A stretch of DNA of 64,000 nt from Megalonaias nervosa (lineage: Eukaryota > Mollusca > Bivalvia > Unionida > Unionidae). The position numbers were made by a program, and so were the translations under genes. The stretch spans positions 45,847 through 109,846 of the forward strand of contig JAECUM010012947.1 in the NCBI GenBank assembly GCA_016617855.1, read 5' to 3'. Numbering within the stretch: the first letter of the stretch is position 1; the number at the start of each line of letters is the position of its first letter. Of the stretch, positions 14,261 through 61,139 are shown piece by piece. The notes under the pieces were generated by a model. It made no database searches. It saw nothing but the letters and a program-made list of their open reading frames with translations, and had not been told where the DNA came from.

Positions 14261-14299
14261 CTGCAGTTCACGTAGTATATACATTATTAGTAATTTCCG

Positions 14300-15640: not shown

Positions 15641-15749
15641 ATTTTACAGATTCAGAAATATTTTTATTATTATATTAATTCTGATTCAGAAATATTTTTA
15701 TTTTTATTATTCAGAATTATTTTTATTTTAAATAAATATTTATCATATA

Positions 15750-16255: not shown

Positions 16256-16395
16256 GCAAAAAAAAAATATTCTACTCAGAATCAGATTATTTATTTTTTA
16301 TCCTGATAATATTTTTTTTTTGTTCCACGAAAGCGAGATCTACGATGACGTTCTACGAACGTTAGATCTATGATCTCAAGATCTACGATGACGTT

Positions 16396-16896: not shown

Positions 16897-16932
16897 ATAC
16901 AGATCTCGTAATTCATCATCGGCTTTTATGTT

Positions 16933-17676: not shown

Positions 17677-17700
17677 TATTATTAAGTAGAATCTGAAGTA

Positions 17701-18703: not shown

Positions 18704-18727
18704 TATACAATACAATATAATAGTTGT

Positions 18728-19150: not shown

Positions 19151-19224
19151 CGAGGTATCCTTCCTGGTAATCTTAGATCTCGACCGTGCCCGGGTATGTT
19201 CCTGGTAATCTTAGACCTCGACCG

Positions 19225-19656: not shown

Positions 19657-19689
19657 TTATAATAATATTTTGATTTTTAAATTAACAAT

Positions 19690-21056: not shown

Positions 21057-21064
21057 CTTTATTA

Positions 21065-21520: not shown

Positions 21521-21546
21521 TTTATTATAGTTATTATATCTACTGT

Positions 21547-22580
21547 TTAATCACTGTGGTAATTGTCCGTAATTTCATCGACGAGTTCCCGGTAAACATT
21601 AATGTCCATGCTACTGCCTGTAAATAATCGTTGACAAATTGATGCTATCTCGTTGATGATCTCAGTAGAGTTATTACCAGCTCGTTTTCCACCAATCAGA
21701 ATTTCTAGTCGATCAACATCAGCAAGAATGTTATCCAGACATGGAGTAATAAGACCACTTCCTTGAGTACCAATACCACTTCCAGTTGCGCCGGGAGCGT
21801 CTTGCCATTCTTCCTCACTTAATATTTGACTGGCTGCTCTTTTTTGTTGTGGTTGTTGTTGTTGTACTTTTCGCTGCAGCTGTTTTATTTCTTGTTGTTT
21901 TTTTTTTTTTTGTCGTTGTGATATTTGTTTTTGTCGTTGCTCTGGTGGTAGTTGTATCTATGAAATATAATTATCTATTGCATGAATATATTGAATATAT
22001 TTTGAATCGCTGTTTCGAGCTTGATCAACGTTGTAGTATATGCGAAATATCCATTTGTACCAATTTTCACGACTCACAGAATCATCAGCATATTCAGGTT
22101 TTAAAAGTTGTTTTCGACTATCATAACTTTTCACAGCACTCGCAGCTAATTGTTTTATATTTTTGGCCTGTCTGATATTATTAATAACATCTTCGCTAAA
22201 TTTATCAATCAGATTAACCTTGGCTCGTGCTTGTTCTGGTTCTAGTTTATCACCCTCAGCTTGGTCTGCATCTTCAGGTATTTCCGGGGTTGGCATCGCA
22301 GTAGCTATTTTCTCCGGAAGTTCTTGTAAAATCTTTTTTGTCTTCTTAGTTCGCTCTGCTATTTTTTCAGTTACCGCAGCGGTTTTTTGTAATTTTGGAA
22401 CAATATCTTTAGTAGTCTTTGTAACAGGTTTAAATAATTCTTCTGCGGATTCTGCAAATTCCACCTGAGATTCCTTACGTGCTTGTAGTTTTTGTTTGAC
22501 AGAATCTCTCACGGGTATATATTTTTTGATTGCCTCTAGTCGCTCTCGAGCTAACCTTGCTGAGTGAGATCACCAATCAT
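21547..22580 (-). pseudogene. Coiled-coil, glutamine-rich Polinton late protein, broken by a stop
   Basis: The frame is readable from about 22580 (a TGA lies at the W-rich start near 22571). It continues through RLARERLEAIKKYIP, a long charged helical part (TEKIAERTKKTKKILQELPE) and ENWYKWIFRIYYNVDQ to a TAG at 21958-21960. The same frame then continues with a Q/K-rich coiled coil, EEEWQDAPGATGSGIG and a helical end, stopping at 21547. It opens the minus-strand late block next to the right terminal repeat. Function not recognised. Confidence 0.6.
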
Positions 22581-26757: not shown

Positions 26758-26958
26758 TATGGAATCCTGTTAGGGCCAATCGCTCCATCGCTCCATCGTG
26801 TATTTCACCGGGCGATGGAGCGATGCGATGGCGCGATGAAATTACCATCGCTCCATCGCATCGCTCCATCGCTCCATTGCATCGCTTCATCGGTCCATCG
26901 CCCGGTGAAATACTACACGATGGAGCGATGGAGCGATTGACCCTAACAGGATTCCATA
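26758..26958. mobile_element. Foldback element made of CGATGGAG repeats
   Basis: A near-perfect palindrome of about 200 bp: TATGGAATCCTGTTAGGG at the left end and CCCTAACAGGATTCCATA at the right. The middle is packed with CGATGGAG/CTCCATCG words and a GGCGATGGA...TCCATCGCC pair. RNA or single-stranded DNA would form a long hairpin. GC content is well above the flanks. Non-coding; probably a foldback or MITE-like element. Confidence 0.85.
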
Positions 26959-34724: not shown

Positions 34725-34865
34725 TATAACGGGAATTTAAAGTGGGAATGGCACTTGTGGGGCAAAAGGGAATTTAAAATGGGAATGACACTTGTGGAAA
34801 AAACGGGAATTTAACATGAGAATGACATTTGGATGACAAACGGGAATTTAACATGGGAATGGTAC
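34725..34865. repeat. Short tandem repeat, about 40-bp unit
   Basis: Four copies of GGGAATTTAA(A/C)(A/G)TGGGAATG(A/G)CA(C/T)TTGTGG-like units; the minus-strand frame over them is an artefact. Confidence 0.8.
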
Positions 34866-35039
34866 ATAGTGGAACAGACGTGTTTATAGGGACAATCAAA
34901 CATAGGCAAACAAACAAACACTTATACAATACAAAGACAACATTTTTTGTGAGTGGAGTTGGAAAAAGAGACAATATTTATACAACACAAAGACAAAAAA
35001 TACTTTGGCAAAAGTAGAAGAGTATATCTTTTCTAGGCA

Positions 35040-35315
35040 AATGAATGGCCCTGAAAAGGACCTTCGGAGTTTCTTCTACGTATTCCCTGCCCTCCAGGTC
35101 TTCCACTTCTCTTCAGTTTTTGCAGTAAATTCATTATCTTCTTTTTCAGTCCTCTATCATCAGATCTGGATGCCTCATCCTCCTGAGCGTGTCCTGTACC
35201 TTCTTCCAGTTTTTGTTCAGTCTCTCAAAGTCTGCTTTTTTCTTCTCATTTTTCCCACTTCTTCTCCTTATCCATTACGGTTTTCATTTTCTCATCTTTC
35301 TCGTTCATGACATCA
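35040..35315 (-). pseudogene. Degraded paralogue of the TIR-borne charged protein gene, with histone-type 3' signal
   Basis: Minus-strand reading starts near 35310 (MNEKDEKMKTVMDKEKKW), shifts, and gives ADFERLNKNWKKVQDTLRRM followed by RHPDLMIED and a stop. The TIR gene at 48011-48586 has EDFDRLNKNWMKIQQKFRTM and GHPDW in the same order, so they are homologous. A stem-loop (35047-35062) closes the gene. It has no terminal-repeat partner nearby and is the remnant of another element. Confidence 0.65.
35047..35062 (-). terminator. Histone-type stem-loop (copy D)
   Basis: Minus strand reads GGTCCT-TTTC-AGGGCC: a six-pair stem (one G-T) and a TTTC loop. TAGAAAAGA starts 11 nt further on, at the spacing shared with the other three copies. 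Confidence 0.7.
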
Positions 35316-47531: not shown

Positions 47532-47599
47532 TTATACCAAATTACTTAAGTACATAGAATCACGAACCATTCGTGTTCTACATCAATTTAATTCCTTAA

Positions 47600-47765
47600 C
47601 TCCTAGACACTTGCAACAATGTAGCAAGTACCGTGACGTCATGCCACCTGTGTCATTTCTATATACAAACACGAATCATTTGCGTTCGTGTTTGTGTATA
47701 GCAAGTACCCTGACGTCATGCCACCTGTGTCATTTTTTTTAGAAAATTTGAATCATTCGCGTTCG
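47600..47765. repeat. CRE-bearing 77-bp tandem units, left
   Basis: Two units with TGACGTCA at 47634-47641 and 47711-47718 (77 bp apart), each followed by TGCCACCTGTGTCATTT. Confidence 0.85.
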
Positions 47766-47979
47766 TGTCAGTGAATAGTATAGTATAGTATGTTTTATAT
47801 GTTCTTTTTTTTTCCATAGATTGATGAACATCAATCTATCATACACAAATTATAAAATCGACTAACAAAATTTTTTAGGTAAGAGAATAATGTTTTGGGG
47901 AGTTAAATATAAATTATACCATCGAATAAAAAAAATTTTTAGGCAAGAAAGAATAAATATCTTTTCGAGACAGTGGAGT

Positions 47980-47995
47980 GGCCCTGAAAAGGGCC
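47980..47995 (-). terminator. Histone-type stem-loop (copy A)
   Basis: Minus strand reads AAA-GGCCCT-TTTC-AGGGCC-ACTCC: a perfect six-pair stem and TTTC loop. It lies 15 nt after the stop of the gene at 48011. TCGAAAAGA follows 11 nt later, in the place of a histone downstream element. Processing by the U7/SLBP pathway is inferred. Confidence 0.82.
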
Positions 47996-48010
47996 TTTGG
48001 GTTTTTGCTT

Positions 48011-48586
48011 CTATTGTCTCCAGTTCTTCCACCAGCTTCTTAATGTTCCAATGATTCCTTTCTTCTTCTTTTTCTTTTCTTCTTCTGGTATCCAGTCTGG
48101 ATGTCCCATAGTTCTAAATTTTTGCTGTATTTTCATCCAGTTCTTATTCAGTCTGTCAAAGTCCTCATTCTTTGTTTGGTTTTCCTTCTCCTTTCTCTTT
48201 TCTGTCCATATCTCTTTGATTTTCTTCACCTCTTCTCCCATTACCTTTTTCATAATCTCTTCTCCTTTCTTTAATCCGTCGAAGCATTTTTTGACAGAAG
48301 TCCACTCGGTTAAATGGAATATGTCTTCCAAATAACATCTGACTTCTATAACAATATCAATCACTTGTTTCAAAGTTCCCACTCTTGCATATTTAAGTTG
48401 TATAAAGCCTCTTAACTTCTCCACTTCCTCCACTATCATCCCTTGTAAATCAAAACTGGCTACTTTCAGTCTGGTCACCAAGTCTTGGCTGCCTGGGAAC
48501 CTTCATTCCTTTTCAAACCTATCCAGTATGTATGATCCATCCATCATCCAATACCAACTGTCTTTTAATTGGTTAAATACTTCCAT
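48011..48586 (-). pseudogene. TIR-borne charged helical protein, left copy, one stop
   Basis: The best start is the ATG ending at 48586 (MEVFNQLKDSWYWMMDGSYI), about 55 bp below a TATATAA box (48641-48649). An in-frame TGA (48503-48505) breaks the frame after 27 codons. It then continues with a helical region (MIVEEVEKLRGFIQLKYARV), a K/E-rich coiled-coil-like part, EDFDRLNKNWMKIQQKFRTM and a basic aromatic tail ending RSWWKNWRQ. No known domain. The 3' end has the histone-type signal. Homologues: right TIR copy (59872) and relic at 35 kb. If the TGA is recent, an internal start (from about 48481) is possible. Confidence 0.65.
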
Positions 48587-48639
48587 CTTGATAGGTGTTG
48601 ACTAGTCAACGTGGGTAGCCAGACTCACTAGCGTTCCGC

Positions 48640-48650
48640 GTTATATACGT
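48640..48650 (-). promoter_or_regulatory. TATA box of the left TIR gene
   Basis: ACGTATATAACGC on the minus strand. The right TIR has GTATATAAC in the matching place (59695-59702). Confidence 0.65.
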
Positions 48651-48689
48651 CAAGCACGGACGTGAACGAAAACATTCCTTAACTTACTT

Positions 48690-48869
48690 CACGTATTATA
48701 TACTATCCACATCAACGAATGAAAAAGCATAAAACACACCTATTTACTATCCACACGAACGAACGCGAATGCATAAAACACACACCTATTTACTATCCTC
48801 ACCAACGAATGAGAAAGCATAAAACACACACCTATTTACTATCCACACCAATGAATGAGAATGCATAAA

Positions 48870-48912
<43 letters not shown>

Positions 48913-49040
48913 TTTACTATCCACACCAACGAAGGCGAATGCATAAAACACACACCTATTTACTATCCTCACCAAATGAGAATGCATAAAATATACACAT
49001 ATATACTATCCACACAAACGAACGCGAATGTATAAAACCC
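48690..49040. repeat. 46-bp minisatellite with (AC)n, left TIR
   Basis: Units of TATTTACTATCCACACCAACGAACGCGAATGCATAAAACACACACC, one with an expanded AC run (about 48873-48908). The reverse complement recurs at 59310-59650. Confidence 0.88.
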
Positions 49041-49223
49041 TACTCGGTTTTAGTGTCGGAACGCTATGATAGCTCATGTCATGGTGAGGGATAGAGAGAA
49101 GTCAAAGAGCATTTGTAATGATAAAATTTTTTGAAAACAAACAACAGACACATTTTTTCAAAACTCAACATTTTTTATTCAACCAACAACTAACCACTAA
49201 CAATAACAATAACATCAAACAAA

Positions 49224-49781
49224 TTATTTTTGACAAGGTTGACAACGTTGTGAAATCTTGTGAGATTTCCACTGATGGAAGTCATGAGGCCATTGATGTA
49301 CACTACGTTTTCTAGCTAAAGACAAAAGATAGCCATAATGGTCACAAAACCATCGATCTACTTTCTCATCGTTTCTAGAAGAGTGACGATCAAAATAAGT
49401 CACTAAATGTTCTAAGGGATATCCAAGACTGCGTTGATGAAGAAAATACACACAATATTGTCCACACACCATGGAATCTGTGCCTTGTAATTTCACATTA
49501 TTGTATCGTGTCGTCTAGGCATTTCTTCTCATAAAGTCAATGATATCGTCTTCCAAAGGGGGTAATCCATACGAATCAAAATATTCCACACAATTCTCTT
49601 GAGGGAAGTAGACGGCAACCCAGTGAGTTCCTGGAAGATGACTTTCGTCCGTGTTGATGACATAAGCTTGATGGTCTTGAGGTTTGCGATGAGGTAGTTC
49701 ATCTTTAGCGCACACGACAGGATTCCAAGAAGCAGTATACGAACTGTTGTTCAAAAGGTAATAAAGTTCCCAGGTATCCAT
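49224..49781 (-). pseudogene. Adenain-like cysteine protease, one stop
   Basis: Starts MDTWELYYLLNNSSY. Catalytic His in PGTHWVAVYF, acidic partner in YFDSYGLPP, and nucleophile Cys in DSMVCGQYCVYF. An in-frame TAG at 49515-49517 separates the His/acid half from the Cys half. The remainder runs to a basic C-terminus (KISQRCQPCQK). It would mature capsid proteins, like adenovirus protease. Last gene of the minus-strand cluster, 25 bp after the 168-aa gene. Confidence 0.88.
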
Positions 49782-49806
49782 TTTGTTGTGTTGTTTTTGT
49801 TTTTTT

Positions 49807-50313
49807 TCACAGGTAATGATAAGTCATCAATTCAATTCTGACTTTTTGTTTGAAACGATCTGTCAAGTATCCGTTTCTTTGCCTTGTCTCCGCACTCTGG
49901 TCTAAGAGAGCTTCGATGCGATAGATCTCTAGAGTAGTCAGTGGAGGACAGGAATGATCACGCAAGCCTTTATACCACTCATGCAACACGGTTTCTTCCG
50001 AGATGAGACCCCAAGCGTCGTCCAGATACTCGTCCAATTTTTCCTCTTGACTCATCATCATACATTTATCGTGTTGAATTTGACTGAGATGATCGTTTTG
50101 ACATCCATAACAATATTTCTTACTCAATTCCGTAATTGTATTCGCCAGGTGTTTAGCAAAACAGGACACTAAATGTTGTTCTTGTTCTGGCCATCTGGAC
50201 GTGACCACTACCTCGTTCTCTTTGTCTTGGTCTTGGGGTTTTGTTTTCACGCTATCCTCCCATTCCATGTCCAAAGATTCTCTATCGCTCAATGAGGGAT
50301 AGGAGTCTTCCAT
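49807..50313 (-). CDS. 168-aa protein with Cys/His cluster
   Basis: An intact frame, MEDSYPSLSDRESLDMEWED. The acidic N-terminus is followed by a zinc-like cluster CYGCQNDHLSQIQHDKC and a helical C-terminal half (LTTLEIYRIEALLDQSAETR). The start lies 5 bp after the capsid gene stop, so it is probably co-transcribed. I do not recognise a function. Intactness between two broken genes may be chance. Confidence 0.6.
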   Translation of the reverse strand: MEDSYPSLSDRESLDMEWEDSVKTKPQDQDKENEVVVTSRWPEQEQHLVSCFAKHLANTITELSKKYCYGCQNDHLSQIQHDKCMMMSQEEKLDEYLDDAWGLISEETVLHEWYKGLRDHSCPPLTTLEIYRIEALLDQSAETRQRNGYLTDRFKQKVRIELMTYHYL

Positions 50314-50318
50314 TGTTT

Positions 50319-51030
50319 CTAATAGTCTAGAATGACTTCTCTCAAACTGTTGATTTCGATGGTATTATCGAATTCGGCATACAAGATGACGTTGACCGTC
50401 TCGGTGAGAGCTTCTGCAAACTGAAGTTCCACACGCAGTTGACCAGATTTTATAGGGTGGAAATGTCCCTCGTCGCTGCCTTGGTCTGGAGTGAAATCAA
50501 AAGCCCACAAAGTGTAACCTCCTTCATAATCTTCGTACGAAATGCCGTGACTGGTGTTGATTCCTAGCTGTCCGGTAGCTTCGTAAAGGGACAAGTACGA
50601 TCTCAAGTAATTCTTCTGGGCAAAGTTAGGTTCGAAGGGTCTGGTACACAAGGTCTTGCCATCGCGACTGACTTCGATCTTGGACACTCTGTAGTGCTTA
50701 AACTGGAAAGGAGTTTGATCGTGGGCTCCGTCGAGGGCTGCATTACTGACGATGCCAACGATTAAACGTTTGGGTAACTGTCCTTGGAACAGATGATCTT
50801 CGATCTTGGATCGGAGTCCAGCAGCAATAGTGAATCTTTTCACTTCTACACGTCGTATCGGATATTTGGCGGTCGATCAGCTCAATGTTTGACTGATGTC
50901 GTTTCCCGCTTTAGGTAACACTTCTACGCGACGCATGTAAAGTCTGGCTTCTTGGATGATGGTTTTGTACTCGTTGGCATGAGCCATCAAATGGAAAGCG
51001 ACACTGCTGCGATTGAGTTTCAGGCGAATA
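50319..51030 (-). pseudogene. Capsid protein ('F54H12.2-like'), C-terminal part only
   Basis: The remaining part begins near NGVDIRLKLNRSSVAFHLMA and continues YMRRVEVLPKAG. It meets a TGA (50877-50879) and resumes in frame with AKYPIRRVEVKRF, LFQGQLPKRLIVGIVSNAAL and YTLWAFDFTPDQ, ending VILDY at 50319. This family is widespread in adintovirus-type elements and is thought to be the major capsid protein. The N-terminal half is missing: the sequence abuts the ATPase end at 51030-51050, pointing to an internal deletion. Confidence 0.78.
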
Positions 51031-51051
51031 TCCACTCCATTGTGGTTGTGG

Positions 51052-51774
51052 TTAAGTCGACGACGGGGACGTGTACACGACAGGCCCTCCGTCTTGGCAC
51101 CAGTGGTGAAACAGATGGGTACGAAATCGCAAATAATCGGGAGTGGTGGGTTTTAAATCCACGAGTAAATAGGCATGTGGGGTTTGAGTGGCATCGTCGT
51201 ACGCATGAGTCAGCCAAGGCATTCCTAACTGTTTGGCTTGCACTTGCGATTTATCTCTAGGACTTTTAAAAAAGACCACGTAATGAGCATTGAGACTGAT
51301 GGTGCGATGGGCTTTACTTGGTTGAAACAAATTTTGAGTGATGTAAATGGCACTGGCATTACGATGATGCCCTCTGCGCGTAAACCACAGTTTAATTTCT
51401 TCTTCGTCTTCTCCTAACATGTCGTCAAAAATAACCAAATGAGTTTGACTAGGGTCAGACACGATCCTGTCGTCTTCGCTAGGAATGCCTTCCACAAACA
51501 CGATGGAATCGCCTTAACTTTCTCGCAGAAGGCTGTACGCCGATTGCTACTCTTTGTAACACCACACGATGCGTTGAGGGGGACGATCGATCAAATGATG
51601 TTTATGTTCGATCAAACGTTTGACAAATTCGGTTTTGCCGGAACCGCTAGGTCCAGCTATGAGCATGTTAAAGGGATGTCGAAGATACAAGGTCTCCCAA
51701 CTAGCACGATCTAAGTGTTCGTCGATGACTTTGAAAGTGGAGGAAGAGGGAGCAGAGACAGCAGAGGTAGTCAT
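51052..51774 (-). pseudogene. A32-like DNA-packaging ATPase, two stops
   Basis: Starts MTTSAVSAPSSSTFKVIDEH. An intact Walker A (MLIAGPSGSGKTEFVKRLIE) is followed by in-frame TAG (51547-51549) and TAA (about 51514-51516). Then come Walker B HLVIFDDMLGEDEEE and a sensor-like region SAIYITQNLF. A TATA box (GTATAAAAAC, 51831-51840) lies 57 bp upstream. It would translocate DNA into capsids. The stop is followed directly by capsid sequence (deletion junction). Confidence 0.88.
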
Positions 51775-51830
51775 AATAGTAGCAGTGCAAGGAAAATGTC
51801 AGTTTTGACACGAAGACAGACAAGACAAGA

Positions 51831-51840
51831 GTTTTTATAC
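51831..51840 (-). promoter_or_regulatory. TATA box of the ATPase gene
   Basis: GTATAAAAAC on the minus strand, 57 bp upstream of the ATG; the same word recurs upstream of other genes of this element. Confidence 0.65.
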
Positions 51841-51868
51841 TTTTTTCAGGACACGTTTATTGTCATCT

Positions 51869-52237
51869 TTAAATGTGAATAACACGAAAGACAAAAATAC
51901 ATAAAATCCAAATGGTTAAGTACATGAATAAAAGACACATCAAAACGATCATAGTGGAATATAAACAAGTCTCTGTACAACATTTGTGATGATCAAGAGG
52001 TGAAATCGTAGGGGTAGTGTGTAATGTTCTGAGAGTCTCTACACTCCTTGGCACAGTCACACAAGAGTCCTCCCGGAATGGCCTTTCGGGAATGTCAATC
52101 ACGGTCCTGTCCTGAAGAGAGTGGTTTTCCTCGGTCACGACTTCTTCTTCTTCTTCTGGCACTGTCACTAACACTGGTTTAAAAGTTACTTTTTTCACTG
52201 AACGTTTTAATTTTTTAGGATTACAAATCTTTGGCAT
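51869..52237 (-). CDS. Single-pass membrane protein, 122 aa
   Basis: An intact frame: basic N-terminus (MPKICNPKKLKRSVKKVTFK), an acidic EEEEEVV patch, a cysteine pair, then a hydrophobic span MIVLMCLLFMYLTIWILCIF near the end. No signal peptide, so a tail-anchored protein is likely. It overlaps the preceding gene's end by about 16 bp. Function unknown; could be a virion membrane or host-interaction protein. Confidence 0.6.
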   Translation of the reverse strand: MPKICNPKKLKRSVKKVTFKPVLVTVPEEEEEVVTEENHSLQDRTVIDIPERPFREDSCVTVPRSVETLRTLHTTPTISPLDHHKCCTETCLYSTMIVLMCLLFMYLTIWILCIFVFRVIHI

Positions 52238-52687
52238 AGTGTGCCACTACTTTTGTCCATGCCTCAAAACCCCAACTTTTCCAGTCACGTACATCTTTCC
52301 AGTGAGGGTGTAAGTCAAAAGCTACACACACGTCGTCGTACACATCTTCAGTGCCTAAAAGTTGACGAATCTTGTTTTCCCGTAGAGATTGAGAAGTATC
52401 AAGATGAAAGCGCAAAGCTTTGAGCAGAATGAGTCTCTCGTGTACATTTAAACGGACCACTTTCATGCTTTTTTGAGTGGAATGTACTGTTCGTAAAGAA
52501 TCCACAAGGAATCGGCTGGTAAACGAAATCCCAGAAAGCAAGTCACTAAGACACACACTACACGTCGACCCCAATTCAATGGACACAGTTCTCGTAATAG
52601 GTGTTGGTAATCCTCCACTGTTTGAATAGTGTCATTGATTTCAATCCACGGAATCTGTAGTATCACGAATGATAAAGGTCGTGGCAT
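52221..52687 (-). pseudogene. Unidentified accessory gene in two overlapping frames
   Basis: An upstream frame (52463-52687, MPRPLSFVILQIPWIEINDT, then LCPLNWGRRVVCVLVTC) and a downstream frame (52221-52586, MKVVRLNVHERLILLKALRF, then PHWKDVRDWKSWGFEAW) overlap and probably form one gene split by a frameshift. However, the TATA box at 52696-52706 is only ~10 bp above the first ATG. That favours the second frame (start 52586) as an independent gene. NWGRRVV resembles a Bcl-2 BH1 core, a weak hint given the neighbouring BIR genes. Not assigned. Confidence 0.4.
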
Positions 52688-52695
52688 AGTAGTCT

Positions 52696-52706
52696 GTTTT
52701 TATACC
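52696..52706 (-). promoter_or_regulatory. TATA box
   Basis: GGTATAAAAAC on the minus strand between the 52700-53002 gene and the next one. Confidence 0.55.
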
Positions 52707-53002
52707 TCTTTTCTCTTACCTAAAACACTTCTCCTAGAGCGAAAGTAATGGACGTAGTGAATAATTTCTGACCACTGCCATTCCAGGAAACGGTCAAGAA
52801 TGTCAATAAAATCTTCAAATGTAAATGGTCTAAAGCGGAATAGTAGGAAGAACGCACCCTTGATCGAGAGAAATCGGATTTGTTCGTTGACTTTCGTCAA
52901 TTTCCTCTTGTGAATTTCTCGACACAAAAGTTCTACAGTCACTAATTGAGATTTGGCTCTGGCAAGTCCCTGCCAAATGTCCTTGTAGATCTTCTCTTGC
53001 AA
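52700..53002 (-). CDS. Unidentified helical protein, about 100 aa
   Basis: Reads MQEKIYKDIWQGLARAKSQL by an alternative start; the frame stays open further upstream to about 53095. VELLCREIHKRKLTKVNEQI and FEDFIDILDRFLEWQW suggest a six-helix-like bundle. A death-fold (DED) resemblance is possible but weak. It overlaps the TATA box of the following gene. No function assigned. Confidence 0.4.
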   Translation of the reverse strand: MQEKIYKDIWQGLARAKSQLVTVELLCREIHKRKLTKVNEQIRFLSIKGAFFLLFRFRPFTFEDFIDILDRFLEWQWSEIIHYVHYFRSRRSVLGKRKEV

Positions 53003-53123
53003 TTCGTTTGGTAATGTTTGAATATTGTTTTCTACATGGGGTTTAAAATGCTTGTCTAGGGGTTGTCCAATGTTTGACTCCTAGACACGTAGCTGGTTTC
53101 TTACACGACATGGTATGCCCACT

Positions 53124-53741
53124 TCAATGACGAGGTGCCACTAAAGGTAGGTAGTGACAATCTGGAGACCATCGAGCATGTTCCAGGTAAGCGCAATCTT
53201 TCTGTTCCCACTCGTGAAGTGACAGACCGCAACTGAAGCACTTGAGTTTATCCCCTCTGCCCAAGTAGATAAATCCGGCTCTAGCTAATTTTTCGGGGGT
53301 AGGTCCTCCCAGATATTTTGGCCATTTTCCTTGGAAGGTTTGGATCCGACTTTCAAAGTCGCAGCATTCAGGCAAACGCACAGGGAACGAATGTTCGTGT
53401 TTCACAGGTTGAATTCGATGAGGGTACGGTGAAATATGCAGGAGTTTGCTCAGTTTTACATGACATCCGTAGGGTGGTAGCCACATGGTTTCATAAGGAT
53501 GACATCCACCATGAAAACCAGTAAAGTGAAAAGGTGTACGATAACGAGTGGCATCGCTTTCGCATCCATCAGGTTTGACACGCACAGCATAACTTTCCAT
53601 GGTAGGTACAGTCGTAGCAAAATTTCCATGGTGAGGTACTGAATCTCTGAGGTCATAGCGTACGACATCCCTGCCATCGCAAGGCACAGCATCGTACTCG
53701 AGTTTACTCTTGCTTGATACTTGCTGTGTGAAAGGATTCAT
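53124..53741 (-). CDS. BIR-domain protein 1 (IAP type), 205 aa
   Basis: An intact frame. The N-terminal 110 residues have no known domain (MNPFTQQVSSKSKLEYDAVP). The C-terminal BIR has the arginine/phenylalanine opening (ESRIQTFQGKWPKY), LARAGFIYLGRGDKLKCFSC and the rest of the zinc site, EHARWSPDCHYL (CxxC...H...C). There is no RING domain. BIR proteins bind caspases or related partners, and viral forms block apoptosis. A TATA box (53796-53806) lies about 60 bp upstream. Confidence 0.88.
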   Translation of the reverse strand: MNPFTQQVSSKSKLEYDAVPCDGRDVVRYDLRDSVPHHGNFATTVPTMESYAVRVKPDGCESDATRYRTPFHFTGFHGGCHPYETMWLPPYGCHVKLSKLLHISPYPHRIQPVKHEHSFPVRLPECCDFESRIQTFQGKWPKYLGGPTPEKLARAGFIYLGRGDKLKCFSCGLSLHEWEQKDCAYLEHARWSPDCHYLPLVAPRH

Positions 53742-53795
53742 CTTTCTTGCTTGGCGTTTGTAGTGACAATAAACTCTCGGTCTTGGACGTTGTCC

Positions 53796-53806
53796 CTTTT
53801 TATACC
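53796..53806 (-). promoter_or_regulatory. TATA box of BIR gene 1
   Basis: GGTATAAAAAGGG on the minus strand. Confidence 0.6.
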
Positions 53807-53851
53807 AGTCGTAATAAAGTCTCGAGCTTGTACATCGTTCCTGTTTTATGA

Positions 53852-54280
53852 CTAGTTTTGGAAGTCTTCCTTTTTTTTCTTCTTTAACAACGGTACTACC
53901 TTTTCTAAGGTACCGTCATACCTGAACCGTAGTGTGATGGGTGGAAATGCCATAGAAAGGTAAGGACAGTGTGGAGCCCATTGAGTATGTTCCAGAATAG
54001 CTGAATCTTTATAGATACGTCGATCCATACGCAACCTCAGGCCACAACTGAAACACTGTACTTCGTATCCCAATCCAGTCTCAGGTCCCAAGTAGACAAA
54101 CCCTGTTCTAGCTAAAACATTCGCAGTAGGTAATCCTTCCCTATCCGTGGGCCACTTTTGAAACGTTTCCAATCGACTGGCACAACTGCAATAGTCAGGC
54201 AAGAAAACAGAAAAATGGTATGGTTTGAACTTCGAGTTCTCTGTGGGTTTCTCACTCGATTCTTGCTGTGTCGAAGTCAT
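53852..54280 (-). CDS. BIR-domain protein 2 (IAP type), 142 aa
   Basis: An intact frame, MTSTQQESSEKPTENSKFKP. The BIR covers about residues 33-110: ASRLETFQKWPTDREGLP, LARTGFVYLGPETGLGYEVQ, CFSCGL...ILEHTQWAPHCPYL with all four zinc ligands. A C-terminal lysine run (KKKKKED) comes from an A-tract and may mark a shifted end. No RING. It overlaps the polymerase end by 29 bp, and its TATA box (54314-54322) lies inside the polymerase gene. Likely a paralogue of BIR gene 1. Confidence 0.87.
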   Translation of the reverse strand: MTSTQQESSEKPTENSKFKPYHFSVFLPDYCSCASRLETFQKWPTDREGLPTANVLARTGFVYLGPETGLGYEVQCFSCGLRLRMDRRIYKDSAILEHTQWAPHCPYLSMAFPPITLRFRYDGTLEKVVPLLKKKKKEDFQN

Positions 54281-57200
54281 CCTTCTTGTTGGTGACTATC
54301 GTCTTGGAACCATTTTTTATACCAGTTTGACCGTACGGTAAAGTGAAGTGATTGGGAAGTCGTACTCGCTTCTGGTACACGATTTGATAGACTTTTTCCA
54401 AGGGTCGACTGACGATTTGGTGTGTGGGTAAACGTACAATCTTGTGCGGTTCGTGGGTCGTCACTTTAAAATTTCCATCCTGTCCAGACTGCAAGGCTTC
54501 TTGCAAGACGCCAAAGTTCACCACTCGACTGGTGCGATAACTGGGAGTCAATCCTTTCACTTTGCACTCCGTGTACACTTCTCCTTGTTTGTCCCGGTAT
54601 TCGTAGCCGTAATTTTTGGGACCACCACTTGGAAAAATTAGAATCTTGTCGTCCGGATGCTCGTCCATCCATGCGCCTTAACGATCTCCTTCGATGTCAG
54701 GGTGAGGTTGACCCAGGCGATCGATGTAGATGCAACTGTCCGTGTCAAAATACAGCACACGATCTCCTAACAGTTCTAAAGCTTCGTACAGTTTTAAACG
54801 AGCATGGGCTGTCACGTAAGCCGAAATGAAGACATTTCCAAATTCGTCGGCTTCTACAAAGTCCAGTTCTTCTTCGTAATTGACTAAGAGCAAGTCCTCA
54901 CGAAGGGCGTCCACGTCTTTCATGCATTTCGTTTTGTCGTGAATCATCTGGAAGTAGCGGGAAGGTTCTGTCAAATACTCCGTCTTGGGTAAACACGGTC
55001 GTTGTGCCACTTTACCCCACAAACAATTCAACATCACTTTGGCAAACGATCGCCTTCCTTCGTTTTCTCGATGTGGTCTAAAGGGATGCCTTCCTGCTCC
55101 AAGTATTTCTCTTTGAATTTCTTTTGGTGTTCGGGAGTGTCGCACCAGGAAGGATAGCCGCTAACTTTTTGTTTCAGTTTCAAAATGGAATTCACATAGT
55201 CTGCAAAAATCCCTTTTTGAGTCTCGTCGCCTTTGTGGTATTTTTCTGTCTTGGGAAAGTGGTAAATTGTGTACACTTCTAACAGTTGGTATCCCAAGTC
55301 CAGAGCTTTAAACAATTCCACGCTGACCCACGTTCCCGTGAAGGCGCGTTCTTCCTGAGTGTGCTGACAAGGTCGGTCTTGGTTGCACGTTTCGGAACAA
55401 GTACGGCACAAGGGAAACATCAGTTTTCCTTGGCAATGGTGAGGTAAAACGGGATGGTATAAGTACGTGGGAGGCAAGACTTTACATTTGATCAATCCTT
55501 CGTATTGTCTAATATTGTCCACGTAGATGTGTTCCGTCAGCAATTGTGGGTGCCCTGCGGGAAAGTGACAATATTTGCACACGTACGGATACAGAGAACA
55601 CACGTCCAAGTATTTGATTTCCTCTCCTTTCTCTTCGTCGGCTTGGTATAGCAAACAGGTGGCATTCGTCCGTCCTCCGTACAAACTGTCCCTTGGGTTC
55701 AGTGGGTCCACCAGCTTGTAACTTTCCACGATGCGCTTCAACTAAGAATCGGTTTTCAATCGCTGATCGTACTCGTGTTCCCACATTTCTACCACTTGGT
55801 ATCCTTGCTCTTCTAACTTCAAGCGTCGCTGACAAGTGGCCTGGTACAAGTCTTCCATGGTCCGCTGTAAAAACTGATTTTTAGTGTTACGTTGAGGTAG
55901 CAGATAGGACATCCGTGAAATAAGCACCCGTTAAACTCGTACACAATCTTGGGGTTTTCTAAGTCCCAGCCATCCACTGAATATCTTCCGATGGCCTTTT
56001 CGCCTCCTCCGTTGCGAGCATGTTGGATCCATTTGTCTTCCTTGTCACACAAGTAATGTAACCAGCGTAGGGCTTTGACCGAGTACTGACGTTTGAAAAA
56101 GTTCGTCGTTTGAGGACCTATGACAGCCATTGTGTTTTCGGGCATGAATCGTTGGCAGTACACTAAGGAACACGCTTTGGCAATGGTGCAGGCTTCTTTC
56201 AAAGGATCGATCTCTCAGTGTTCCATGAACAGTTCTCGAAATTTTCCACAGCAACGCCGTAAAATGTCCACGTCGGAACGACAATATTTTAACATTTCTT
56301 CCTGAAAGTCGAAAGGGCCCGAGGCGTGAGCGTGGTACTAAGCGTAGAAAGCTTCTCGTTGTTCGGTACGCATGTTGTCGGGGTCGTAGTAGTGAGCCTC
56401 GGGCAAATGGGGTAGAACGGTATGTTGATTGGCTTCGGTATTGAAAAAGTGCGGAAAATAGCCTTTGGCCATTTCTGTCATGCCAAACGTTTTAGGCATG
56501 CGACTCAAAGGCATGGCCAAGTAACTCATCGAATCTTTAAACTGCACTTGGCCCACTTGCATGGAAATGATTTTGGCTCCGTTCAAAGTCACTTTAGGAC
56601 GTTCGGTACTTTGTTCCGTATAGTATCTCAAAAGAAACTGTCCATCGTATCCCGAGAAATTGTGAGCCATCACCGTGGCATAGCGATGACAATCTCCGTA
56701 ACGTTCGATGTCTTCTGGGCTCCACGTCTCGTCGATAGGGTTTAAGATCCATTGGGCAAAATCACCCAAAGTATTCGGTCCCCGAAAAATTTTTTCACGT
56801 TCTCCAGGAATCTTGCTACAGTGAGGGCAATGAGTCAAGATAGGCTCTTGGATGCACTTCTCACACGCTCGATGAGCCACGCAGAAATTTGGAATGTGAA
56901 TGCCAGTCTCTTGCATGCATTCGAAATCGAAAAAGATGAAATTCCTTTTCTTCTTGTGGTCATCTGCTTCCTGTATGGAATGCTATTTCTGAATGTAGCA
57001 TTCGTGTTCCAAGTCCAAGATTTGGTGACAAATATGACATCGTTTCTTTCCTGAACAGACGTGAGCCTTGGCATTATTGGTACGTATGCCTTGTCTACAA
57101 GTAGGGCACAATCTCAGGAGTTGGCAAGCACTTTTCCGCTGTGAACCTTGCGTTTCAGATGTTGTTGGTAACAGGTAGGGCTGACAAACGTGCGCTGACA

Positions 57201-58291
57201 AGCTGGGCAATGCACTCGTTCTTGTCCTTGGTCCAGACAGGGCTTAGAGGCTAAACATCCCTCACATTTAGATTCACAATGCTTGTGTTACTGTCGATTG
57301 TTATAGCAATAGTCACATTTCTCACAGTAATAACCGTATGACAGGAATGCAGTGATACTGGTAATGGCATCGAAATGTTCATCGTGATGATAGACGTGAA
57401 TGTATTTTCCGTCTTTGAAATTTTTGCCTCGTGGAGCCAAGACGTCTTGCAATTTTTGCATTTCAGGAATGCCGCAGGGTGTGTCTTTGGATAGCTCTGC
57501 TTGTTGTAACAGGAGTTCTGCATCTCTTTGTTGTTTGGCTCGGTCCGATTGCTGAATAGTTTTCCAGGCTCTTTTCCATTCTGCTGTGTCGTTCTTGTCG
57601 GCATACGTTCGTCCCACCACGATGGCACGGGCTAAACACATCTGGTCTTGAGGGTTGTTAATTTGAACGATGCTGCGCTTGATGCTGCGAAAACTGTCTA
57701 CCAAGATCACCTTTTTTTTGCCATGTCCTGTCCCTTAGGGAAGAGACACGTGGGTCATGAACAGTGTCGCTTTTCCGTCGGTGATGTGAAACTTGTCGTT
57801 GGATTGTTGTACGTGTTGAATCTTGTCCATGACTTTGGAATTCTGCTGGGCTGCTAAACTCGATCCAAACGGGTGACTTCAAACTGCCGTGATGAATAGA
57901 AAGTCTCAAGCGATCATCTTCTTTGGCTTGACATTGCCGTGGTTAACAAAGAATCCCACACATCAGTGATGAACCCTTCTGCTTTCTCCAACGGTACGTC
58001 GGACTTGAAATCTTTAAACTTCACTGCGTACGTGTAGGCCGTAGTTCTAAATTTTCTACAGGAGCGTTTGTCCGTCTCTCGAATGTGGAAGTACTTTTCA
58101 AGGTTTACTGGTGGCGATGGACTTTGGTTTGGTGTAGACTCTCTGGGCCTAGATTCTGGTTCACTCATCTCATCTTCAAAATCGCTGGAATGAATTTGAG
58201 CCAAGACTTCAGCTACTGTGCGAGCCGATAAATCACACTTCTGCCTCTTACTTTCTTCTCCTTTCTTTACGAAATGATGCGATCGTTTCAT
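54252..58291 (-). pseudogene. Family B DNA polymerase (protein-primed type) with long N-terminus, broken
   Basis: The start MKRSHHFVKKGEESKRQKCD at 58291 lies below TATATAGG (58339-58346). A long N-terminal region (RSIVQINNPQDQMCLARAIV) includes cysteine pairs (CEKCDYC, CHICHQIL). The exonuclease has FFDFE-type and HNFSGYDGQFLLRYY motifs and CRSDVDIL. The palm has KYLDVCSLYPYVC, AKVMLNCLWGKVA and VLYFDTDSCIYID; the C-terminus has SGGPKNYGYEYRD. Stops: TAA about 57288, TAG 56338-56340, TGA 56215-56217, TAG 55742-55744, TAA 54678-54680. Frameshifts near 57910, 57760, 57200, 55915 and 55110. About 1,340 codons, longer than usual for Polintons. It would replicate the element. Confidence 0.9.
54314..54322 (-). 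promoter_or_regulatory. TATA box of BIR gene 2
   Basis: GGTATAAAAAATGG on the minus strand, about 35-40 bp above the ATG. Confidence 0.55.
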
Positions 58292-58426
58292 CTTGACTGC
58301 AAAAAGTTAAATTACTACATTTGAAACGCCACGGACCCCTATATATCCATGTCAGACTCAATGTGTATATAAAGGGCTGGTGTCTTCCCTCTCAGTATTC
58401 ATTTCGCTCTCAAGCCGATCAACACG
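58292..58426. promoter_or_regulatory. Bidirectional promoter between polymerase and zinc-knuckle genes
   Basis: TATATAGG on the minus strand (58339-58346) is about 50 bp from the polymerase ATG. TATATAAAG on the plus strand (58366-58374) is about 53 bp from the zinc-knuckle ATG. The two TATA boxes are head-to-head, 20 bp apart. Confidence 0.7.
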
Positions 58427-58861
58427 ATGGAAGAACCCACACAGATCGAACTTCTGATCAGAGCTTTGCGAGGTGTCATAAGAAAGTTTTCTTCAAACAA
58501 GCCGACGGACTACTCTACCTCCTTTCGAGATAAAAGTCAAGATACTTGCTATATCTGTCAGAAGAAAGGGCATTGGGCTACAGAATGTCCAGACCGTCAT
58601 AAAAGCAAGACCAGTGTCAAAAGAGACAAGAGTCAAGATACCTGTTATCATTGTAAAGAGAAAGGACATTGGTCTTCAGAGTGTCCTAAGAAAGAACAGG
58701 AGCAGGAGGAGGAAGAAGAAAAAGAGGTGCCCTCGGCAAAGGAAGAACCCCGTCACGTTCAGAAAGAGAATACAGAAAAGAAAAGAAGACGAGAAAAAAG
58801 TCAGGAAGAAGAGGAGGAGAAAACTGTGAAAGTGAAGAAATTTAAGAAACAGAGAGAGTAA
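58427..58861 (+). CDS. Two-zinc-knuckle (CCHC) protein with acidic/basic tail, 144 aa
   Basis: An intact frame, MEEPTQIELLIRALRGVIRK. Two CCHC knuckles, CYICQKKGHWATEC and CYHCKEKGHWSSEC, each follow DKSQDT, so the second looks like an internal duplication. The tail has a glutamate run followed by K/R-rich residues (KVKKFKKQRE). CCHC knuckles bind single-stranded nucleic acid, as in retroviral gag or CNBP. It is the only inward gene on the plus strand and the best preserved one. Role in replication or packaging is inference. Confidence 0.82.
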   Translation: MEEPTQIELLIRALRGVIRKFSSNKPTDYSTSFRDKSQDTCYICQKKGHWATECPDRHKSKTSVKRDKSQDTCYHCKEKGHWSSECPKKEQEQEEEEEKEVPSAKEEPRHVQKENTEKKRRREKSQEEEEEKTVKVKKFKKQRE

Positions 58862-59120
58862 AGAAAAAAGACAAAGAAGAAGTCTGTGAACTTTTTAAAA
58901 AAGTGTTGTATTATATTGTGTTGTGATATTGGATTGTAAAAATTTGTAACAGAATAGACCAGACTGAAAAAACGTAAGTGTCTCTTGGTTTTGATTGTTT
59001 AGAATATTAAGGACCTACGCTCACGCACTCACACACGTACATCATTGAGTAAACAAGGGATTTTGAGTTTTAATTGATTTTGGCAAAATGAATTAGTATC
59101 TCTTTTCGAAAGAAGTGAGT

Positions 59121-59136
59121 GGCCCTGAAAAGGGCC
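59121..59136 (-). terminator. Histone-type stem-loop (copy B)
   Basis: Minus strand reads GGCCCT-TTTC-AGGGCC followed by ACTCA, and TCGAAAAGA 11 nt after the stem. Same layout as copy A, but outside the inverted repeat. Confidence 0.8.
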
Positions 59137-59162
59137 ATTGGGTATTTTTTCAGAAAACAATC

Positions 59163-59354
59163 TCAGGAACGATAAGCAATCCGCTTTAACTGCCTTAAGC
59201 CTTTGCCACGGCCAAGGCCTACTTCTGGACTTGCTCCCGTCAATGATTTGGTAGAAATCACTAGGGGTGGTATCTCCGGTGGTGGTGGTGTGTGTGTGTG
59301 TGTTTGCGTTCGCATTTGTTTGTGAGGATAGTATAGTGTGTATGTTTTATGCAT
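59163..59354 (-). pseudogene. Gene remnant upstream of stem-loop copy B
   Basis: The frame begins in the minisatellite (HTHTPPPP), so only the end is informative: LVISTKSLTGASPEVGLGRG, then KGLRQLKRIAYRS and a stop at 59163, 26 bp before the stem-loop. It is a basic tail of an unknown protein. The stem-loop suggests a third gene of the histone-type 3'-end class. Confidence 0.4.
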
Positions 59355-59512
59355 TCTCGTCCGTTGGTGTGGATAGTAAATAGGTGTGTGTTTTATGCTT
59401 TCTCATTCGTTGGTGAGGATAATAAATATGGTATGTTTTATGCATTCTCGTACGTTGGTGTGGATAGTAAATAGGTGTGTGTTTTATGCATTCGCGCTCG
59501 TTGGTGTGGATA

Positions 59513-59565
<53 letters not shown>

Positions 59566-59650
59566 ATGCATTCTCGTTCGTTGGTGTAGACAGTAAATAG
59601 GTGTGTGTTTTATGCTTTCTCATTCGTTGGTGTGGATAGTAAATAATATG
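59310..59650. repeat. 46-bp minisatellite with (GT)n, right TIR
   Basis: Units of TTCGTTGGTGTGGATAGTAAATAGGTGTGTGTTTTATGC, one with an expanded GT run (59516-59561); the counterpart of 48690-49040. Confidence 0.88.
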
Positions 59651-59694
59651 TGAAGTGAGTGTAAGGGATGTTTTCGTTCACGTCCGTGCTTGAA

Positions 59695-59702
59695 GTATAT
59701 AA
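59695..59702 (+). promoter_or_regulatory. TATA box of the right TIR gene
   Basis: GTATATAAC, with the surrounding CACGTCCGTGCTTGAAGTATATAAC shared with the left TIR. The 5' leader to the ATG at 59872 is about 140 bp and GC-rich. Confidence 0.6.
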
Positions 59703-59871
59703 CAGTATAGCGTTCGTCATTCGCACCACATGGCCCAGCTCGGGGCCATGAGCCCAACCCGGGGCCAAGGGCCCAGCCCGGGGCTATAACCAGTCGCAAA
59801 ATCGCTTAAGTGCACAAGCGACTATAATTCTTCAGTCAGTCATTCGCACCATTCAACGCTGAATACAAAAA

Positions 59872-60248
59872 ATGGCTAGCAACATGGAGAGAATGATAAG
59901 ATTGCAGGAGGTGGTAAACATACTAGGCATGGTGGAGGAGATGCTACTTAGAATGCAGCTTGGGGCTTATAGCCCGCACAGACTGGCTATGGAAATCAAC
60001 AATTTAAAGAGAGGAAAGGAGATATTAAATAAGATGATTAGAATTGAAAAGGATGAAAAGGAAGATTTAGAAGACAAAAGGAGGATGAGGGAGTGGAACG
60101 AAAAAATAGAAAAGGAAGAAGAAAATGAAAAAAGGAAGAAACAGGAAAAGGAGGAGGAGAAGGAAAAACAGGAGGAAGAAAAGAATGAGAAGAAGAAAAA
60201 AGTGTAGGACAGAAAATAAGAAGTTGGTGGAGGAATAGAAGAACTTAG
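59872..60248 (+). pseudogene. TIR-borne charged helical protein, right copy
   Basis: Starts MASNMERMIRLQEVVNILGM in good context. A hydrophobic/helical first half is followed by NNLKRGKEILNKMIRIEKDE and a long E/K-rich coiled coil. The frame stops at 60205-60207. The tail homologous to the left copy (IRSWWRNRRT, stop at 60246-60248) is in another frame, so a shift in the A-rich tract has cut the protein. The stem-loop copy C follows 25 nt later. Compared with the left copy, the coding region is strongly diverged while the flanks match. Confidence 0.65.
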
Positions 60249-60272
60249 AAGAAGACAAAGAAGAAAACCAAA

Positions 60273-60288
60273 GGCCCTTTTCAAGACC
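60273..60288 (+). terminator. Histone-type stem-loop (copy C), decayed
   Basis: Reads GGCCCT-TTTC-AAGACC, so two stem pairs are lost. ACTCCATTGCT is followed by TCGAAAAGA at the shared 11-nt spacing. Confidence 0.65.
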
Positions 60289-60528
60289 ACTCCATTGCTT
60301 CGAAAAGATTTATTCTTTCTTGCCTAAAATTTTTTTTAATCGATTGTATAATTTATATTTAACTCCCCAAAACATTATTCTCTTATCTAAAAAATTTTGT
60401 TAGTCGATTTTATAATTTGTGTATGATAGACTGATGTTCATCAATCTATGGAAAAAAAGAGAATATATAAAACATACTATACTATACTATTCACTGACAC
60501 GAACGCGAATGATTCAAACTTTATATAG

Positions 60529-60800
60529 AAATGACACAGGTGGCATGACGTCAGGGTACTTGCTATACACAAACTTGAACGCGAATGATTCGTGTTTGTA
60601 TATAGAAATGACACAGGTGGCATGACGTCACGGTACTTGCTATACACAAACACGAACGCGAATGATTCGTGTTTGTATATCGAAATGACACAGGTGGCAT
60701 GACGTCACGGTACTTGCTATACACAAACACGAACGCGAATGATTCGTGTTTGTATATAGAAATGACACAGGTGGCATGACGTCACTGTACTTGCTACATT
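60529..60800. repeat. CRE-bearing 77-bp tandem units, right
   Basis: Four units with TGACGTCA at 60545, 60623, 60700 and 60777 (spacing 77-78 bp). Each also has ACACGAACGCGAATGATTCGTGT, an imperfect palindrome. Confidence 0.88.
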
Positions 60801-60964
60801 GTTGCAAGTGTCTAGGAGTTAAGGAATTAAATTGATGTAGAACACGAATGGTTCGTGATTTTATGTATTTAAGTAATTTGGTATAAGCCATCAGCCTACG
60901 AAACAGTGGCTGATTTTTTAGTACTGTTGATTGGCTGATGGCGTGTGTATAGAGAGTTATAATA

Positions 60965-61130
60965 TCCACAAACACGGACGCGAATGATTCGTGTTTGTAT
61001 ATAGAAATGACACAGGTGGCATGACGTCACGGTACCTTCTATACACAAATACGTACGTGAATGATTCGTGTTTGTATATAGAAATGACAAAGGTAGCATG
61101 ACGTCACGGTCCTTGCTACATTGTTGCAAC
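60965..61130. repeat. Extra CRE-bearing units outside the element end
   Basis: Two further units (TGACGTCA at 61022 and 61099) lie beyond 60886, suggesting a duplicated or truncated second end. A GCCATCAGCC...GGCTGATGGC inverted pair (60887 and 60933) separates them from the TIR. Confidence 0.75.
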
Positions 61131-61139
61131 TGTATGGTA

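What the first reader, a model, noticed from the sequence alone, without database searches (positions are those of the whole stretch)
47980..60288. Non-histone element genes with histone-mRNA-type 3' ends
Four stem-loops of the form GGYCCT-TTTC-AGGGCC (one decayed) lie 15-26 nt after stop codons, on the coding strand. Each is followed by exactly 11 nt and then T(C/A)GAAAAGA. This matches the known metazoan replication-dependent histone signal (stem-loop bound by SLBP plus a purine-rich downstream element pairing with U7). The associated ORFs are not histones. An integrated DNA virus using this pathway would get non-polyadenylated, S-phase-linked mRNAs; I know of no described case in this group. 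Motif and spacing are seen; processing is inferred.
Basis: partly seen in the sequence, partly recalled or inferred. Interest (0 to 1): 0.88.

Follow-up and report, generated by a model that had tools for sequence, protein, structure and literature searches.

The report
Viral-element genes with histone-mRNA ends
A decayed virus-like DNA element carries non-histone genes that end in the signal animals use to make tail-less histone mRNAs, which suggests, but does not yet show, that it borrowed the host's S-phase mRNA-ending machinery.

Summary
Three perfect 6-bp stem-loops (47980-, 59121-, 35047-; the last outside the given range) and one decayed copy (60273+) each sit exactly 11 nt before T(C/A)GAAAAGA. 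Rfam Histone3 (RF00032) scores two above its cut-off of 34 (38.8, 35.4 bits) and two below (22.7, 19.4). Three diverged copies agree at 94-100% over the loop, 55% over the spacer and 89-100% over the purine element, against 16-58% beyond: the footprint of an SLBP + U7 signal. Of 132 readable background matches in viral and prokaryotic collections, 0 carry the purine element.

The setting is a ~13-kb, decayed Maverick/adintovirus-like element. Two loops lie in its inverted repeats and end outward-facing genes that encode no histone. The left gene has five full-length relatives (56-68% identity); the right has two, one from a freshwater mussel; 35047 follows a diverged copy of the left gene. The stub before 59121 is unidentified.

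Most likely the element used histone-type 3' processing for its terminal genes. Cleavage, SLBP binding and U7 pairing are untested; the host genome could not be searched. Open-access literature searches found no virus or transposon described with such ends.

The parts
47532..49038 (.). left terminal inverted repeat: outer part with 77-bp units, 3' cassette with stem-loop, a diverged coding stretch (about 48086-48639), promoter-like stretch and inner array
   Evidence: inverted repeats; blastn of the two arms: 47622-48085 vs 60642-60172, 47532-47778 vs 60886-60640, 48640-49028 vs 59703-59309
59309..60886 (.). right terminal inverted repeat, same order mirrored; further outer-array copy at 60958-61133
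48011..48586 (-). left terminal gene: 191-codon frame with one in-frame stop (open part 48011-48502); K/E-rich protein family, predicted helical
   Evidence: 5 hits, all full-length relatives, 56-68% identity to the open part; tblastn 48586-48014, 70.7% to P0121; model of P0121
47980..47995 (-). histone-type stem-loop, 15 nt after the stop of the left terminal gene
   Evidence: Rfam RF00032 38.8 bits, match 47955-48000
47960..47968 (-). purine-rich element TCGAAAAGA, 11 nt after the loop (candidate U7 pairing site)
59872..60248 (+). right terminal gene: open for 111 codons to 60207; a C-terminal motif like that of the left gene continues in another frame to a stop at 60246-60248
   Evidence: P0126 (E 5.0e-9) and P0127 of the mussel Potamilus streckersoni (E 3.8e-8), the only 2 hits; frames
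60273..60288 (+). decayed stem-loop of the right arm (2 of 6 pairs broken)
   Evidence: RF00032 19.4 bits, below the cut-off
60300..60308 (+). purine-rich element TCGAAAAGA, 11 nt after the loop
59121..59136 (-). third stem-loop, just inside the right inner array, after a short frame ending ...GRGKGLRQLKRIAYRS (stop at 59163); gene identity unknown
   Evidence: Rfam RF00032 35.4 bits; frames
59101..59109 (-). purine-rich element TCGAAAAGA, 11 nt after the loop
35047..35062 (-). fourth stem-loop, in a separate remnant outside the element; one G-U pair keeps the RNA stem
   Evidence: RF00032 22.7 bits, below the cut-off
35027..35035 (-). purine-rich element TAGAAAAGA, 11 nt after the loop
35137..35265 (-). 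remnant of a second, diverged copy of the left terminal gene
   Evidence: tblastn with 5 of 5 relatives P0121-P0125, E 6.7e-7 to 4.5e-9
54456..56982 (-). family B DNA polymerase of the element, in several frames
   Evidence: PF03175 on three pieces (the 54678-55145 piece alone is under the cut-off); P0011 aligns to 54456; 532 relatives of one piece
49515..49823 (-). piece of an adenain-like protease; the next open piece, 49224-49514, is its presumed continuation and is followed by AATAAA 44 nt after its stop
   Evidence: BLASTP to the protease-like ORF of the window's other element, 47% over 53 aa, E 5e-11, whose own Peptidase_C5 match is under the cut-off (E 0.026); no Pfam match for either piece
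51547..51798 (-). P-loop piece of a packaging-type ATPase (51052-51501 is a possible further piece)
   Evidence: Pox_A32 E 2.2e-4, 21.2 bits, under the cut-off of 22.8; 51052 piece E 0.094
53124..54280 (-). two BIR-domain (IAP-like) genes
   Evidence: PF00653 above the cut-off in both
48640..48690 (-). shared promoter-like stretch (GTATATAAC) before the left terminal gene; counterpart at about 59655-59703(+)
   Evidence: sequence; arm alignment; promoter activity not tested

Best explanation
The terminal genes of this Maverick/adintovirus-like element end in a metazoan histone-type 3' signal that worked in the living element. The hairpin with its CCAAA flank would be bound by host SLBP. The transcript would be cut about 5-6 nt after the hairpin, at the CA present in all four copies. 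The purine element 11 nt on would pair with the 5' end of host U7 snRNA. The mRNAs would then lack a poly(A) tail and be most stable and best translated while the host cell replicates DNA, which would tie these genes to S phase. Shown: the two-part signal, its exact spacing, its orientation, its conservation against diverged surroundings, and the gene families it ends in the two terminal genes. Inferred: SLBP binding, U7 pairing, cleavage and S-phase timing.
For: Rfam RF00032 above the gathering score at two sites. Ungapped footprint among 47980, 35047 and 59121: loop 94-100%, 11-nt spacer 55%, 9-nt purine element 89-100%, the 6 nt just before the loop 50-83%, all other bins 16-58%. 3 of 3 perfect loops carry the element, against 0 of 133 background matches to GGYCCTTTTCAGGRCC (83 viral, 50 prokaryotic; 132 with 25 nt or more of sequence after them, 113 able to form all six pairs, 109 distinct) and 0 in 150 simulated windows. 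The left gene has five full-length environmental relatives and the right one two. A copy of the left gene at 35137-35265 keeps the signal though its gene is broken up. The G-U pair of 35047 keeps the stem on the coding strand only; the opposite strand folds otherwise. Bivalve histone mRNAs carry this kind of stem-loop (PMC6210712, one passage read).
Against: No RNA data. Host U7 and host histone 3' ends could not be compared: the own-genome search did not complete in 12 tries. The copies in the window are decaying (stop in the left gene, broken frame and loop in the right, truncated 35047 and 59121). The DNA around the environmental relatives could not be read, so the signal has not been seen beside an intact gene. 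In PMC6210712 the clam's purine elements were found in only some histone genes and at varying places, so the fixed 11 nt here was not matched to bivalve histones. Absence of AATAAA is weak support: none within 950 nt after the stop at 4 of 4 loop genes, but its mean spacing in the window is 727 nt per strand and 10 of 12 other ORF ends examined also lack it within 300 nt; ATTAAA lies 88 nt after the stop before 59121. Folding z-scores are poor for 35047 (-1.3) and 60273 (-0.3, where the best fold is not the loop), and the two good loops fold as well or better on the opposite strand.
Confidence: 0.74

Rival explanations
1. A host histone gene end was picked up once, and the block has since been copied with the terminal repeats without being used; it is a passenger.
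For: 47980 and 60273 are repeat arms of one element; the copies in the window are damaged.
Against: 35047 and 59121 keep loop and purine element while the spacer and flanks have drifted; 35047 keeps the stem through a G-U pair; 59121 follows a gene end that looks unrelated to the terminal genes.
Confidence: 0.13
2. The hairpin is a DNA or RNA element of another kind, such as a transcription terminator, a replication or packaging signal of the repeat ends, or a cruciform.
For: Two copies lie in terminal repeats, where replication and packaging signals are expected; the two good loops fold as well or better on the opposite strand.
Against: 59121 lies inside the repeats and faces inward; loop, flanks, spacing and purine element together fit the histone model; both terminal genes and the 35047 gene copy have the loop on the coding strand.
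Confidence: 0.08
3. Chance hairpin matches.
For: Single 16-mers of this form do occur: 83 stretches in viral contigs. In two of three loci from a looser scan GAAAAGA even occurs, but 27 nt after the stem.
Against: Rfam E-values, 0 of 132 readable background matches with the element in the next 40 nt, 0.06 expected loops against 3.
Confidence: 0.01
4. Hybrid use: the terminal genes make both stem-loop-ended and polyadenylated mRNAs, as reported for H2A.X.
For: ATTAAA 88 nt (59121), 418 nt (left gene) and 578 nt (right gene) after the stop. PMC7807067 on dual ends of H2A.X mRNA was seen only as a listing with the start of its abstract.
Against: No AATAAA within 950 nt of the loop genes, which is weak evidence.
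Confidence: 0.04

Closest known systems
Metazoan replication-dependent histone mRNA 3' end (Rfam RF00032; SLBP + U7 snRNP)
   Same: 6-bp stem, 4-nt loop, CCAAA-type flank before and AC(Y)CA-type flank after, purine element downstream; close to the stop codon; single-frame short genes
   Different: The genes encode no histone and belong to a virus-like element; the purine element is GAAAAGA 11 nt after the loop (mouse core AAAGAG, PMC7026596, passages read)
Adintoviruses / Maverick-Polinton elements
   Same: Family B polymerase, terminal inverted repeats, adenain-like and packaging-ATPase-like pieces (below curated cut-offs)
   Different: No integrase found in this copy; the capsid gene could not be proven; outward-facing terminal genes with histone-type ends are not a feature I know of for the group (recalled; the main adintovirus paper is not held)
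Viral histone-like genes ('Histoid' of adomaviruses, PMC11071296, passages read; bracovirus H4 is recalled)
   Same: Animal DNA viruses drawing on histone biology
   Different: There the protein is histone-like; here the mRNA end is histone-like and the protein is not

Membership tests
Histone 3' UTR stem-loop (RF00032) | Score above Rfam's curated cut-off | tested here: met
   2 of 4 copies (38.8, 35.4 bits; cut-off 34); the other two not (22.7, 19.4)
Histone 3' UTR stem-loop (RF00032) | Purine-rich element downstream, CA cleavage site between (positions recalled) | tested here: met
   T(C/A)GAAAAGA at 11 nt in 4 of 4; CA ending 5-6 nt after the stem in 4 of 4
Histone 3' UTR stem-loop (RF00032) | Pairing with the 5' end of the host's U7 snRNA | not tested
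   The genome search on the own genome unanswered in 12 tries (first, last)
Histone 3' UTR stem-loop (RF00032) | Cleaved, poly(A)-minus transcript | not testable with these tools
   no RNA data
Replication-dependent histone gene | Encodes a histone | tested here: not met
   no histone family among Pfam matches of the two terminal ORFs or of the five left-gene relatives; the two right-gene relatives and the 59121 stub were not scanned
Adintovirus / Maverick-Polinton | Family B DNA polymerase of the group | tested here: met
   PF03175; 532 relatives, 120 listed, 13 of these with an organism name: 11 arthropods, 1 clam (Mercenaria), 1 bacterial MAG
Adintovirus / Maverick-Polinton | Adenain-like protease and packaging ATPase | tested here: inconclusive
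   one protease piece matches the window's second element, itself only weakly C5 (E 0.026); Pox_A32 E 2.2e-4, under the cut-off
Adintovirus / Maverick-Polinton | Retrovirus-like integrase | tested here: inconclusive
   no rve match among the 20 distinct element ORF pieces scanned against Pfam; 89 stop-to-stop frames of 60 aa or more overlap the range, so most were not scanned
Adintovirus / Maverick-Polinton | Double-jelly-roll capsid protein | tested here: inconclusive
   candidate 50319-50876(-) (resemblance recalled) has only a weak, unrelated Pfam match, no PHROG or PDB match, and a poor model (mean pLDDT 43.8)
Adintovirus / Maverick-Polinton | Terminal inverted repeats | tested here: met
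Adintovirus / Maverick-Polinton | Target-site duplication | tested here: inconclusive
   only the end sequences were printed and read by eye; the right end is disturbed by an extra array copy and a short insertion; none recognised

The most novel reading that the evidence does not exclude
A lineage of animal Maverick/adintovirus-type viruses expresses its terminal genes through the host's histone mRNA pathway, so that viral mRNAs without poly(A) tails are made and kept mainly in S-phase cells; the same cassette (shared promoter-like stretch, gene, stem-loop, U7 site) is held at both genome ends, and the signal is re-used by at least one further gene. This would be the first viral, and as far as I know the first non-histone, user of SLBP/U7 processing in animals.
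Probability: 0.5. Interest if true: 0.9.

Novelty: new variant of a known kind. Interest (0 to 1): 0.76.

Why it matters
In animals the SLBP/U7 route is taught as reserved for histone mRNAs (recalled). A mobile DNA virus carrying the full signal on unrelated genes would show that the route can be taken over by a block of about 50 nt, would give a natural test of what SLBP and U7 require, and would suggest how a virus with its own polymerase links gene expression to host DNA replication.

Tried and rejected
Related loci in viral contigs with one polymerase piece, with a 26-row polymerase alignment and with the left-gene alignment: none confirmed; the left-gene alignment also none in genome contigs. 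So no DNA of a related element was obtained. A first loop pattern in viral contigs gave 3 stretches, unrelated in sequence; in two of them GAAAAGA occurs, 27 nt after the stem. Rfam was run on 10 of the 136 loci held (L003 and nine): no Histone3 match, one abiF. Structure of the left-gene family (P0121 first): helices only, mean pLDDT 78.0, no fold match with E <= 0.001 in PDB or viral models. Homology of the left and right gene products over their length: not found (hhalign probability 2.2%); the shared part is the 3' cassette. Capsid model of 50319-50876: too poor to use. The idea that all four loops are independent was dropped: two are repeat arms. A mollusc host is a guess from one right-gene relative; the named polymerase relatives are mostly arthropod.

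Literature: ten searches of open-access PMC papers. Six aimed at viruses or transposons with histone-type ends and none of the listed papers describes one, as far as titles and starts of abstracts tell (388 papers, 25 listed, 0 of the 25 holding 'histone stem-loop'). Four aimed at the sequence, mollusc histones or U7. Passages were read in PMC11071296, PMC6210712 and PMC7026596; no paper was read whole. Subscription papers are not held, nor is the main adintovirus paper.
Full report
WHAT IS THERE. The window holds three perfect hairpins, GGYCCT-TTTC-AGGGCC, and one with two broken pairs: 47980-47995(-), 59121-59136(-), 35047-35062(-) and 60273-60288(+). In all four, 11 nt follow and then T(C/A)GAAAAGA; a CA ends 5-6 nt after the stem, where histone pre-mRNA is cut (position recalled), and CCAAA, CCAAT or CCGAA stands before it. 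Rfam's Histone3 model scores 47955-48000 at 38.8 bits and 59097-59141 at 35.4 bits, above its cut-off of 34; 35047 (22.7) and 60273 (19.4) are below it.

CHANCE. The loop pattern with up to 3 mismatches matches 4 times, against a shuffle mean of 0.72 and a maximum of 3 in 100 shuffles. In 150 first-order Markov windows a perfect loop appears 0.06 times per window and never with GAAAAGA 6-18 nt after it. As an empirical background, GGYCCTTTTCAGGRCC was scanned in viral contigs (83 stretches) and, with AY added, in prokaryotic genome contigs (50 stretches). Of these 133, 132 have 25 nt or more after the match, 113 can form all six pairs and 109 are distinct; 0 have GAAAAGA in the next 40 nt. In the window 3 of 3 perfect loops do. 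A looser scan gave 3 more stretches, two with GAAAAGA 27 nt after the stem.

FOOTPRINT. Comparing 47980, 35047 and 59121 position by position without gaps, the loop is 94-100% identical, the 11-nt spacer 55%, the purine element 89-100% and the 6 nt just before the loop 50-83%. The 24 nt after the purine element are 42-58%, and the other bins 16-48%. A recently copied block would not show a drifted spacer between two frozen parts; constraint on just the SLBP site and the U7 site would. 35047 keeps its stem through a G-U pair, which the opposite strand would not form; there the predicted fold is another one.

THE ELEMENT. Three of the four loops lie in one element bounded by inverted repeats: outer parts 47532-48085 and 60172-60886, inner parts 48640-49028 and 59309-59703. 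Between them are a family B polymerase in several frames (532 relatives of one piece), an adenain-like protease piece, a P-loop piece with a Pox_A32 match under the cut-off, two BIR genes and a zinc-knuckle gene. No integrase was found in the 20 ORF pieces scanned and a capsid could not be proven, so I call it Maverick/adintovirus-like and no more. The host is unknown. One right-gene relative comes from the freshwater mussel Potamilus streckersoni, while 11 of the 13 organism names among the 120 listed polymerase relatives are arthropods and one is a clam.

THE GENES. The left arm's gene runs from 48586 to 48011 on the minus strand with one in-frame stop. Its open part found five relatives of 182-197 aa at 56-68% identity, all from contigs of 0.9-1.15 kb. 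AlphaFold predicts helices, with no significant fold match; the C-terminus is basic. The right arm's gene (59872+) is a different protein with two relatives. Its 3' end shows a C-terminal motif like the left gene's in another frame, and the arms are alike from there through the loop. 35137-35265(-), upstream of the 35047 loop, is a remnant of a second copy of the left gene (5 of 5 relatives hit it). The stub before 59121 ends in GRGKGLRQLKRIAYRS; I could not identify it. Both terminal genes start downstream of a shared array and a TATA-like stretch.

POLY(A) SIGNALS. None of the four loop genes has AATAAA within 950 nt after its stop; the presumed protease end has one at 44 nt and the 51869 ORF at 7 nt. 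But AATAAA is spaced 727 nt apart on average per strand, and 10 of the 12 other ORF ends examined lack it within 300 nt, so the contrast is weak. ATTAAA lies 88 nt after the stop before 59121 (all).

MECHANISM. The best reading is that SLBP binds the loop, U7 pairs with the purine element, the RNA is cut between them, and the mRNA stays tail-less and S-phase-linked (0.74 for a working histone-type end in the living element). Histone mRNAs of the clam Lucina carry such a loop, though purine elements were found in only some of its genes and at varying places (PMC6210712, one passage). That U7 base-pairs with a downstream element with a purine core is from PMC7026596 (passages). Against the reading stand the decayed copies, the lack of any RNA, U7 or host histone data, no view of the signal beside an intact gene, the weak folding scores of 35047 and 60273, and opposite-strand folding as good or better for the two good loops.

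COMPARISON AND NOVELTY. By signal, two copies are members of RF00032; by gene it is no histone. Six literature searches of an open-access library aimed at such a case listed none; subscription papers are not held. The nearest theme seen is histone-like proteins in adomaviruses (PMC11071296, passages), which is a different thing.

Noticed in passing
8503-22512: A second, unrelated Maverick-like element or set of genes (rve match under the cut-off on the plus strand; AAA_19 ATPase/helicase, adenain-like protease under the cut-off and DJR capsid PF21738 on the minus strand) without any Histone3 match.
   Followed up: partly
47622-47775, 60487-60811, 60963-61133: 77-bp tandem units in the outer repeats that hold the palindrome TGACGTCA, 2, 4 and 2 times in these stretches; CRE/ATF-like by recall.
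   Followed up: partly
60887-60942: Short insertion at the right end whose edges read GCCATCAGCC ... GGCTGATGGC, like a small inverted-repeat element (read by eye).
   Followed up: no
53124-54280: Two neighbouring BIR-domain genes beside the polymerase.
   Followed up: partly
58427-58861: Zinc-knuckle gene with two CCHC motifs and an upstream TATATAAA stretch, reading towards the right repeat.
   Followed up: partly
34728-34861: 37-bp tandem units downstream of the 35047 loop, unlike the 77-bp units of the main element, suggesting the end of a different element.
   Followed up: partly
26804-26881: Long imperfect hairpin that weakly matches mir-592 (E 0.12, 27.3 bits against a cut-off of 67); probably repetitive sequence.
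   Followed up: no
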